64,000 nucleotides of DNA from Paralcaligenes sp. KSB-10. Lineage in GTDB: Bacteria; Pseudomonadota; Gammaproteobacteria; Burkholderiales; Burkholderiaceae_B. The DNA lies in contig NZ_CP089848.1 of the NCBI RefSeq assembly GCF_021266465.1, positions 1,736,001-1,800,000 of the forward strand, read 5' to 3'. A program made the position numbers and the translations under genes. The notes beneath the pieces were generated by a model, which worked only from the letters and a program-made list of their open reading frames with translations, was not told the DNA's origin and searched no databases. Of the stretch, positions 7,699-9,652 are shown piece after piece (within the stretch, counting starts at the first letter, position 1; every line of letters begins with the position of its first letter).

Positions 7699-7743
7699 TC
7701 ACATTGCGGCATGCCTGGAATGAACTTGCCGACTCAGCGTATA

Positions 7744-7817
7744 CCTCGATGCATGACCTCAACGTTTCTCTCGGTGCATGACCTCAACGCTTCCCTCTAT
7801 GCATTTCCTCAACGCAA
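7744..7817. repeat. Three tandem ~25-bp units in the M1-M2 spacer
   Basis: Three imperfect units of 24-26 bases, each containing the pattern ctc-ntgcat-nnnctcaacg, in direct tandem between M1 and M2. Copies 2 and 3 of the compound repeat carry only one such unit at the same position, so the unit number differs between copies. Confidence 0.75.
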
Positions 7818-7868
7818 GCCGCAGGGTGGGTGGTGCTGTGCAGGCCGGCGGTAGTCCAGCGCCGGGTG
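7818..7868. repeat. Module M2 of repeat copy 1, 5' fragment
   Basis: The first 51 bases of the 221-bp M2 module, including the left 31-base inverted arm (two differences from its partner arm). The remaining 170 bases continue at 9316-9485, on the other side of the insertion sequence. Joining base 7868 to base 9316 restores the uninterrupted M2 sequence seen in copies 2 and 3. Confidence 0.9.
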
Positions 7869-7875
7869 CAATGGA

Positions 7876-7886
7876 ATGGACGCCCC
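7876..7886. repeat. Left subterminal inverted repeat of the IS
   Basis: Atggacgcccc, the exact reverse complement of bases 9302-9312. It lies seven bases inside the left boundary of the element. Confidence 0.9.
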
Positions 7887-7961
7887 TTCTCGAACCGGCA
7901 TCATTGTGCCAAAGTGAAGGGGTTACTAACTCATTCACTGCTATCGGAAGGAGCATCCATC

Positions 7962-8993
7962 ATGAAGATTACAACGATTGGTCTTGATTTAGCAAAGTCC
8001 GTGTTTCAAGTTCACGGCGTGAATGCGCAAGGCCATACCGTCTTGACCCGGCAACTACGCCGCGAGCAGCTCAGCGCCTTCTTTGCGAAGCTGACACCGT
8101 GCCTCATCGGCATGGAGGCCTGCGCGAGCGCCCACCACTGGGCGCGGCTGCTGCGCGACCAGGGCCACGACGTGCGGCTGATCGCCGCGCAGTTCGTCAA
8201 ACCTTACGTTAAATCCAACAAGAACGATGCCGCCGATGCGCAGGCGATCTGCGAGGCCGTCACCCGGCCCTCCATGCGCTTTGTCGCCATCAAATCGGTC
8301 GAGCAACAAGCGGTACTGAGCCTACACCGGGCCCGTGAAGGCTTCGTCAAGGCGCGCAGCGCCGCGGCCAATCAGATCCGCGGCCTGCTGGCCGAGTTCG
8401 GGTTGATCCTGCCCCAAGGCATCGCTCACGTCACCCGGCGGGTGCCGGCGTTGCTTGAGTCCGCGCTGGCGCGCCTGCCTGGCCCTTTCGTGGAACTCAT
8501 CCGTACGCTGGTTGAACACCTGCGCGCGCTCGATACGCAGGTCCAGGCCCTGGAGCGATCGATCGTGCACGGGCATCGTGCCAATCCGGTCAGCCAGCGG
8601 TTAGCGCAGTTGCCCGGAATCGGGCCGATTACGGCCAGCGCCCTGGCCGCCAGCGTGGGCGATCCGCGGCTCTTTAAAAATGGCCGGCAACTGGCCGCCT
8701 GGCTAGGTTTGGTGCCGCGCCAGCACTCCAGCGGGGGCAAGGCCACGCTGCTGGGGATCAGCAAGCGCGGCGATGGGTACCTGCGCAAGCTCCTGCTCTT
8801 GGGCGCGCAGTCGGTGCTGATCCGAGCGCGCGCCCAGGCCGATCGAACGACCTGGCTAGGCCAACTGCTTGTGCGCCGCCCGCTCAATGTGGTGGCCATC
8901 GCGCTGGCCAATAAAAATGCGCGCATCGCCTGGGCTCTGATGGCGTACGACACGCCCTACGACCCTGGGCATACGCTGAGCCGGGCCCGCTAG
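7962..8993 (+). CDS. IS110-family (IS1111-type) transposase/recombinase
   Basis: A 343-residue RNA-guided DEDD recombinase of the IS110 family. The RuvC-like N-terminus has the acidic set Asp9 (GLDLAKS), Glu52 (GMEACAS), Asp89 and Asp92 (KNDAADAQAI). The C-terminal Tnp_20 domain has the helix-hairpin-helix-like LPGIGPITASALAA segment and the serine pair HSSGG (about Ser256/257) that supplies the nucleophile. I chose the ATG at 7962 because a GGAAGGAG ribosome-binding site precedes it and MKITTIGLDLAK is the standard family start; a longer frame open from 7830 runs into the flanking repeat and is not real. The gene looks intact, so the element may be active. Confidence 0.95.
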   Translation: MKITTIGLDLAKSVFQVHGVNAQGHTVLTRQLRREQLSAFFAKLTPCLIGMEACASAHHWARLLRDQGHDVRLIAAQFVKPYVKSNKNDAADAQAICEAVTRPSMRFVAIKSVEQQAVLSLHRAREGFVKARSAAANQIRGLLAEFGLILPQGIAHVTRRVPALLESALARLPGPFVELIRTLVEHLRALDTQVQALERSIVHGHRANPVSQRLAQLPGIGPITASALAASVGDPRLFKNGRQLAAWLGLVPRQHSSGGKATLLGISKRGDGYLRKLLLLGAQSVLIRARAQADRTTWLGQLLVRRPLNVVAIALANKNARIAWALMAYDTPYDPGHTLSRAR

Positions 8994-9120
8994 GGTCTAC
9001 GGCACGCGTACCGAGCTCGGGGCCAACCCGGCAGCGCCTCACCACCGTTTATCCCTTTTAACGTAGGACACCACCGCACCGATTGCTTGAAGCACTTTTA
9101 GCCGTAATGGCCACTTAGGT

Positions 9121-9260
9121 CAGACCAGGACCAGTCAAACCCGATTCGTCAGCCGCACATCAAAGTGCTTGGGTGCTAAGGGGAGCCGGTCAGCACAACC
9201 CATTAGGGGCCGTGACACGCGTGTCACCTCGTCAAGCCCGGATGTACTGCTGCAATCAAC
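9121..9260 (+). ncRNA. Candidate bridge RNA (seekRNA) of the IS1111-type element
   Basis: IS1111 elements encode a guide RNA in the non-coding region 3' of the transposase. Here bases 9145-9152 are the exact reverse complement of the first eight bases to the right of the insertion (9316-9323). Bases 9171-9177 are identical to the target strand across the junction (7864-7868 plus 9316-9317). A gcac/gtgc hairpin (9155-9158 with 9165-9168) separates the two. A second loop follows: ccatt (9200-9204) is the complement of bases 7870-7874 at the left end, then a 16-base palindrome (9212-9227), then atgtac (9242-9247), which matches the right-end/left-end circle junction. The ends of the RNA are not defined here. 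The function is inferred. Confidence 0.6.
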
Positions 9261-9301
9261 ACCTAAGAAACCGGAAGGGCAAAAAAGGGCTAGGCAAATT
9301 A

Positions 9302-9312
9302 GGGGCGTCCAT
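9302..9312. repeat. Right subterminal inverted repeat of the IS
   Basis: Ggggcgtccat, the exact reverse complement of 7876-7886. It lies three bases inside the right boundary of the element. Confidence 0.9.
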
Positions 9313-9315
9313 GTA

Positions 9316-9652
9316 CTGACGAAGGGAAGGCGGGGGCTTTCGGCGGGCGCTGTCTGAGCCCGGCCTCGCGAGGCCGGGCGAGTTCGCCCGACGCCCGCCT
9401 GGACGAGGCAGACCCGGGCAGTCGCGGTGCGTAGCACCACGACCGCTGGACGTGCCGGACTGCACAGCACCGCCCACCCTGCGGCGTCTTTATAGAATTA
9501 ACCGCCGCCAACACAGCAACGCTCAATCCAAAGTCATCGCCCCAGCCAGCACAGGCAGCTCAAAGTCACTACCCATGCCTAAAAAGCGGCTAAAAAAACA
9601 AAGCCACTAAAACACGTTCAGCCCTGTAAACACTCGAACCGAAAATGCGCTA
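9316..9652. repeat. Compound intergenic repeat, copy 1, right part (rest of M2 and tail)
   Basis: Bases 9316-9485 complete the 221-bp module M2: a perfect 22-bp palindrome at 9358-9379, a variable hairpin at 9421-9443, and the right 31-base arm ending at 9485. The tail 9486-9652 starts with gtctttatagaattaacc, as in the other two copies, and ends with gaaaatgcgcta, whose last three bases are the rsmA stop codon read on the minus strand. Reading frames of 60-110 codons across this stretch exist in all copies but follow the repeat, not a protein. Confidence 0.88.

What the first reader, a model, noticed from the sequence alone, without database searches (positions are those of the whole stretch)
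9121..9260. The guide segments of a bridge RNA (seekRNA) and their exact target can both be read in this window
Seen: in the IS 3' non-coding region, 9145-9152 is the exact reverse complement of the eight bases right of the insertion (9316-9323). Bases 9171-9177 equal the opposite-side target across the junction (7864-7868 plus 9316-9317). The two guides recognise opposite strands, both cover the same CT dinucleotide at the junction, and flank a gcac/gtgc hairpin. A second, similarly ordered loop follows: ccatt (9200-9204), complementary to the left IS end; a 16-base palindrome (9212-9227); and atgtac (9242-9247), matching the circle junction. Known: IS110/IS1111 elements use a bridge RNA with separate target and donor loops, encoded 3' of the transposase in IS1111. 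Inferred: this region is that RNA, programmed for repeat module M2. The ccatt match is short and weakest.
Basis: partly seen in the sequence, partly recalled or inferred. Interest (0 to 1): 0.85.

Follow-up and report, generated by a model that had tools for sequence, protein, structure and literature searches.

The report
IS1111 element's guide RNA and target
A jumping DNA element in this bacterium carries, in its own sequence, the guide RNA that tells it where to land, and its landing site, a repeat with at least 58 further empty copies in the same genome, can be read directly from that guide; the mechanism is already known, and this is a clear new example of it.

Summary
The window holds a complete IS1111-type element (7869-9315: 343-aa DEDD transposase, 12/12-bp subterminal repeats, 7/3-bp ends). 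Its 3' non-coding region carries two target guides: 9145-9153, complementary to the right target, and 9171-9177, equal to the left target plus CT. Four identical copies sit at GGGTG|CTGACGAA in a dispersed structured repeat that has 58 uninterrupted exact sites in the genome. Among 63 relatives, most with different targets, 43 carry guides matching their own flanks (at least 12 nt in total), against 2.7% when flanks are swapped. The donor guides also hold: the left donor guide matches the element's own right end in 61/63. A covariance model built without this element finds 9118-9257 at E=3e-22, with a two-loop bridge-RNA fold. The sister element in another Alcaligenaceae genome was naturally re-aimed by changing one guide. 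Verdict: an IS1111 bridge RNA (seekRNA), a new member of a known kind. Transcription was not shown.

The parts
7869..9315 (+). IS1111-family insertion sequence, 1447 bp
   Evidence: Four identical copies in the genome; the flanks joined without the IS give GGGTGCTGACGAA, which occurs uninterrupted 58 times
7869..7875 (+). left terminal extension CAATGGA (7 bp)
   Evidence: Position outside the sTIR; relatives have YAATGG
7876..7887 (+). left subterminal inverted repeat ATGGACGCCCCT
   Evidence: 12/12 complementary to 9301-9312
7962..8993 (+). DEDD transposase/recombinase gene, 343 aa
   Evidence: Pfam PF01548 + PF02371; NCBIfam NF033542 IS110 family RNA-guided transposase, 352 bits; GLDLAK, GMEA, NDAADA and GLVPRQHSSG motifs
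9118..9257 (+). bridge RNA / long seekRNA (extent set by conservation; transcript ends unknown)
   Evidence: Hold-out covariance model: 88 bits, E 3.3e-22 in the window; four hits in the genome, all inside the four IS copies
9129..9191 (+). target-binding loop: outer stem 9129-9135/9185-9191, inner stem 9140-9142/9181-9183, hairpin 9155-9158/9165-9168
   Evidence: Consensus fold; 13 of these 14 pairs show double changes across 29 relatives; in this element the outer stem has one non-pair (A9133/C9187)
9145..9153 (+). right target guide TTCGTCAGC, complementary to top strand G7868 + 9316-9323
9171..9177 (+). left target guide GGGTGCT, equal to 7864-7868 + 9316-9317 (pairs with the bottom strand)
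9193..9253 (+). donor-binding loop: outer stem 9193-9195/9251-9253, inner stem 9207-9210/9236-9239, apical hairpin
   Evidence: Consensus fold
9200..9203 (+). right donor guide CCAT, complementary to ATGG 7871-7874 of the left end; T9204 pairs A7870 here but this base is not family-supported
   Evidence: RDG 4-mer covaries with the left end: CCAT:ATGG 53, TCAT:ATGA 3, GCAT:ATGC 1
9212..9227 (+). palindrome GTGACACGCGTGTCAC = apical hairpin of the donor loop (6-bp stem)
   Evidence: a hairpin of different sequence stands here in relatives, with double changes
9242..9247 (+). left donor guide ATGTAC, equal to the right end ATGTA (9311-9315) + first IS base C; T9248 equals target base 9317
   Evidence: 61/63 relatives carry their own right-end 5-mer here; core base equals the first IS base in 60/61
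9301..9312 (+). right subterminal inverted repeat
9313..9315 (+). right terminal extension GTA (3 bp)
9291..9315 (+). half-promoter: -35-like TAGGCA (9291-9296), and TA (9314-9315) completing a -10-like TACAAT with 7869-7872 only in the excised circle, 17-bp spacing
7818..7868 (+). left part of the occupied target repeat, ending in GGGTG
9316..9485 (+). right part of the occupied target repeat, starting CTGACGAA

Best explanation
The region 9118-9257 encodes the bridge RNA (long seekRNA) of an IS1111-family element. When the element is a circle, joining its ends assembles a promoter (-10 TACAAT across the junction) that can drive the transposase gene and the RNA behind it. The RNA folds into a target loop and a donor loop. 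In the target loop, 9145-9153 pairs with the top strand right of the insertion point and 9171-9177 with the bottom strand left of it. In the donor loop, CCAT pairs with the left IS end and ATGTAC with the right IS end. The transposase uses this RNA to bring target and circle together and recombine them, which puts every copy, in one orientation and without duplication, at GGGTG|CTGACGAA in a dispersed structured repeat. Shown by sequence: the guides, their covariation with target and ends, the conserved fold, the insertion sites, the absence of a duplication. Inferred from published experiments on relatives: transcription, RNP formation, the circle and strand exchange.
For: Guide matches with joint chance 1.5e-5. 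Four identical copies at four loci in the same site; 58 exact uninterrupted sites. Of 63 relatives with defined ends, 43 have RTG+LTG of 12 nt or more against their own flanks and 37 have 14 or more, against 2.7% and 0.56% of all 3906 flank swaps. LDG in 61/63 against 4.6% for a different right end; the LDG core base equals the first IS base in 60/61; the RDG covaries. Structure: 20 of 28 pairs with double changes, 98 such cells against 25 in shuffles and 11-19 in slid versions. A hold-out covariance model gives E 3.3e-22 and hits only the four IS copies in the genome. Natural re-aiming: L039/L168 keeps LTG GGGTGCT but changes the RTG to TCAGACAGC and sits at GGGTG|CTGTCTGA; the G059 and G057 elements differ in the left guide (TGGTCCG, TTGTCCG) exactly as their targets do (TGGTC|CG, TTGTC|CG). 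The guide order (top-strand complement first) and the downstream NCR agree with IS1111 seekRNAs (PMC11187229).
Against: No transcript, RNP or movement was shown. 20 of 63 relatives fall below the exact-match threshold, which may reflect diverged or off-target insertions, boundary errors or other causes that were not resolved. The RDG match is short (4 nt supported) and in this element its next outer base (C9199 opposite A7875) does not pair. The single-sequence MFE does not show the fold (z about +0.5). Published ISEc11 data show that an 82-nt short seekRNA suffices for transposition (PMC11187229), so the role of the donor loop is not settled for this group.
Confidence: 0.95

Rival explanations
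1. The guide-target matches are chance similarities in a G+C-rich non-coding region; the transposase protein alone reads its target.
For: Individual matches are short (7-9 nt); 7-mers of this kind occur by chance in 1.7% of shuffled NCRs.
Against: The joint ordered match has chance 1.5e-5. Relatives carry guides for their own, different targets far above flank swaps, including sister pairs in which guide and target changed together.
Confidence: 0.01
2. Only the target loop is a working guide RNA (short seekRNA). The donor-like matches downstream are kept for other reasons, such as folding or processing, while the protein reads the subterminal inverted repeats to find the ends.
For: In ISEc11 the 82-nt short seekRNA moved a mini-IS more efficiently than the long form (PMC11187229). 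The 12-bp sTIRs offer an alternative signal for the ends.
Against: The left donor guide changes together with the right end in 61/63 relatives (GTA, ATA, CTA, AGA, ACA types) and with the first IS base in 60/61, and the right donor guide changes with the left end.
Confidence: 0.12
3. All four copies share one target because the repeat spread with the IS inside it, not because the IS was aimed at it.
For: The four IS copies are identical and the repeats are similar.
Against: 58 copies of the site are uninterrupted. The four occupied repeats differ from one another inside the repeat and in flanking DNA. The NCR carries guides for this very site, and the sister IS sits elsewhere in a related repeat with a matching altered guide.
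Confidence: 0.02

Closest known systems
IS1111 family seekRNA elements (ISPa11, ISEc11, ISKpn4; PMC11187229)
   Same: DEDD transposase of 330-350 aa, sTIR of 11-13 bp with 7/3-bp extensions, downstream NCR, two target matches with the top-strand complement first, no target duplication, a promoter formed at the circle junction; ISPa11 also aims at a dispersed palindromic repeat (REP), ISKpn4 at foldable attC sites
   Different: Other target (a 221-226 bp structured repeat) and other guide sequences; transcript and movement not tested here
IS621 and the IS110-group bridge RNA (PMC11208160, PMC11208158)
   Same: Two-loop RNA whose target loop and donor loop each read both strands; IS621 also inserts into REP sequences
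   Different: RNA is 3' of the transposase gene and the guide order is reversed; long sTIRs; target and donor share only one base at the junction here, against a CT core in IS621
Element of Alcaligenaceae MAG bin118 (L039 = L168, 75% aa identity)
   Same: Same ends, same left target guide GGGTGCT, sits in a related structured repeat
   Different: Right target guide TCAGACAGC instead of TTCGTCAGC; inserted at a different point of the repeat

Membership tests
IS1111 family | DEDD (RuvC-like) transposase with C-terminal PF02371 domain, 330-350 aa | tested here: met
   343 aa; PF01548 and PF02371 above gathering scores; GLDLAK, GMEA, NDAADA, GLVPRQHSSG motifs
IS1111 family | Subterminal inverted repeats of 11-13 bp with 7-bp left and 3-bp right extensions | tested here: met
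   12/12 bp at 7876-7887/9301-9312, CAATGGA and GTA outside
IS1111 family | Long non-coding region downstream of the transposase gene | tested here: met
   322 bp from stop codon to IS end
IS1111 family | Specific target, single orientation, no target duplication | tested here: met
   4 of 4 copies; joined flanks equal the uninterrupted site
IS1111 family | Two guides in the NCR matching both target strands, top-strand complement first | tested here: met
   9145-9153 then 9171-9177; same order in relatives
IS1111 family | Circular intermediate with an active promoter at the junction | not testable with these tools
   A -35/-10-like pair with 17-bp spacing arises only in the circle; -10 is TACAAT/TATAAT in 54 of 63 relatives; activity not tested
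Bridge RNA (IS110 superfamily) | Conserved two-loop secondary structure | tested here: met
   28 pairs, 20 with double changes; hold-out model E 3.3e-22
Bridge RNA (IS110 superfamily) | Donor loop reads both element ends | tested here: met
   LDG 61/63, RDG 4-mer covaries
Bridge RNA (IS110 superfamily) | Same core dinucleotide in donor and target (CT in IS621) | tested here: not met
   Only the first base is shared (56/63 relatives); the second differs (A or G in donor, mostly G in target). A property of the IS110/IS621 group; it does not define IS1111
Bridge RNA (IS110 superfamily) | RNA is transcribed and bound by the transposase | not testable with these tools
   Needs RNA sequencing or co-purification

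The most novel reading that the evidence does not exclude
In this branch of IS1111 elements the crossover rests on a single shared pyrimidine rather than a two-base core. The same base is the third position of the -10 box (TA|YAAT) formed in the excised circle, so the element's choice of targets would be tied to the promoter it needs for its own expression. The left donor guide reads this base (60/61) and its next base tends to follow the target's second base (56/61), which suggests a handshake-like check between donor loop and target.
Probability: 0.3. Interest if true: 0.45.

Novelty: new member of a known kind. Interest (0 to 1): 0.35.

Why it matters
It shows that the aim of an IS1111 element can be read and checked from one genome: guide, occupied sites and 58 uninterrupted sites. 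The set of relatives gathered here gives dozens of natural guide/target/end combinations, including sister elements re-aimed by one guide, against which the pairing rules of IS1111 bridge RNAs can be tested: length of each guide, number of core bases, role of the donor loop. These rules are less well settled than those of IS621.

Tried and rejected
Rfam search of the locus and of four related loci gave no family. Single-sequence folding of the RNA does not show the structure (z +0.4 to +0.6); only the comparative fold does. The fifth base of CCATT was considered part of the donor guide and dropped, because most relatives have C there. A CT core shared by donor and target was considered and dropped. 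Looking for further copies in the genus was fruitless because only this genome is held. Plasmid matches are 60-90% relatives, none covering 80% of the element. Literature searches for IS1111 core rules found nothing beyond the three 2024 papers.

Full report
What is there. The window holds an insertion sequence at 7869-9315 (1447 bp). Its 343-aa protein (7962-8993) matches PF01548 and PF02371 and NCBIfam's IS110 family RNA-guided transposase at 352 bits. Of solved structures the nearest by sequence are ISCro4 (9t56) and IS621 (8wt6) recombinases, E about 1e-8. The 12-bp subterminal inverted repeats are perfect, with CAATGGA outside on the left and GTA on the right. The transposase gene is followed by 322 bp of non-coding DNA up to the IS end. 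These are the features by which the IS1111 family is recognised (PMC11187229).

The observation. The right target guide is one base longer than stated, 9145-9153, pairing also with G7868. Finding both target guides in this order within 60 bases has a probability of 1.5e-5 in first-order Markov versions of the NCR.

Copies and targets in this genome. The genome holds four copies of the element, identical over 1447 bp. They lie at four loci whose flanking repeats differ, yet each is inserted at GGGTG|CTGACGAA, in one orientation. The joined 13-mer occurs 58 more times without an insertion. Thirty of these sites were read and all lie in a dispersed repeat of 221-226 bp. The joined flanks equal the uninterrupted site, so there is no target duplication.

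Guides against targets in relatives. A scan of one genome per species returned the 80 best loci encoding related transposases. Ends could be set for 63 elements, this one included. In 43 of them the NCR contains a right and a left target guide for the element's own flanks with at least 12 nt in all, and in 37 at least 14 nt, in the same order and mostly 13-20 nt apart. When flanks are exchanged between elements, 2.7% and 0.56% of 3906 pairs reach these values. The targets mostly differ between elements, so the guides follow the targets. Sister elements show this directly. The closest relative (L039, same place as L168; 75% aa identity) keeps the left guide GGGTGCT and left target GGGTG, but has right guide TCAGACAGC and right target CTGTCTGA. 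Its site lies in a related repeat, at a module 33 bp further along. In two genomes of the same family, G059 and G057, the left guides read TGGTCCG and TTGTCCG and the left targets TGGTC|CG and TTGTC|CG.

The donor loop. The last five bases of each element's own right end recur in its NCR in 61 of 63 elements, against 4.6% for another element's different right end, and the next base equals the first base of the IS in 60 of 61. For this element it is ATGTAC at 9242-9247. The right donor guide is CCAT (9200-9203), facing ATGG of the left end; relatives with ATGA or ATGC ends have TCAT or GCAT. The fifth base, T9204, pairs with A7870 here, but most relatives have C in this place, so the CCATT match should be counted as four bases.

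Structure. The alignment of 29 relatives gives two loops of the same plan: an outer stem, an inner stem and an apical hairpin, with the two guides in the two arms. Of 28 pairs, 20 have changes on both sides that keep the pair; 98 cells show such changes against 25 in shuffles and 11-19 when the partners are slid. A covariance model from 25 relatives without this element and its two nearest relatives finds 9118-9257 with 88 bits, E 3.3e-22; in the whole genome it finds only the four IS copies. Because related sequences share history, the pair counts are not independent events.

Circle junction. Joining the ends gives TAGGCA, 17 bp, TACAAT, a promoter-like pair that does not exist in the integrated form. 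The -10 hexamer across the junction is TACAAT or TATAAT in 54 of 63 relatives, and a -35 hexamer with at least 4 of 6 matches lies 16-18 bp upstream in 55 of 63, against about 10% at random places of the NCR. Active circle-junction promoters have been shown in a few relatives (PMC11187229). Activity here is inferred.

The core. The left IS end, however, reads CA, not CT. Across 63 elements the first base of the IS equals the first base right of it in 56, while the second bases differ in most (donor A or G, target mostly G). Six of the seven exceptions could be compared with the left donor guide: in five the guide base equals the IS base and not the target base, in one (L106) it equals neither. 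The seventh, L081, has doubtful ends. So the shared core here is one base, against CT in IS621 (PMC11208158). The base after it in the left donor guide tends to equal the target's second base (56 of 61, but mostly because G is common; the informative cases are 6 of 11, several of them sister elements).

Mechanism and standing. The best explanation is an IS1111 bridge RNA that aims the element at one site of a structured repeat. Shown here: guides, covariation, fold, insertion sites. Inferred from published work on ISEc11, ISPa11, ISKpn4 and IS621: transcription, binding by the transposase, circle formation and strand exchange. Whether the donor loop is needed is open, since a short ISEc11 seekRNA of 82 nt was sufficient for transposition (PMC11187229). 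The finding is a well-supported new member of a known kind; IS elements of this superfamily that aim at dispersed palindromic repeats are also known (ISPa11, IS621).

Noticed in passing
window 7818-7868 + 9316-9485; uninterrupted copies e.g. L009:1455-1675, L013:1339-1559 (- strand): The target is a 221-226 bp dispersed repeat with at least 58 uninterrupted and 4 IS-split copies, 93% mean column identity, a consensus fold of 86 pairs (-163 kcal/mol) and double changes at 11 pairs, concentrated in exchangeable hairpin tips. No Rfam match. Its nature and means of spread are unexplained.
   Followed up: partly
L040, L056, L078 around their IS copies: Several related elements in other genomes also sit inside sequences flanked by long inverted repeats (20-30 nt), as if this branch often aims at structured repeats.
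   Followed up: partly
L090 and L091: Two copies of one IS with the same guides in Methylobacter sp. KS41 sit in targets that differ at several right-side bases (GTAGGG|CGCATTAG and GTAGGG|CGGATACG), a natural measure of mismatch tolerance.
   Followed up: no
window 7733-7814: Three imperfect 32-nt direct repeats at 25-bp spacing (CTC..TATGCAT..CCTCAACG) stand just left of the target repeat; similar TGCAT/CTCAACG units precede the other repeat copies.
   Followed up: no
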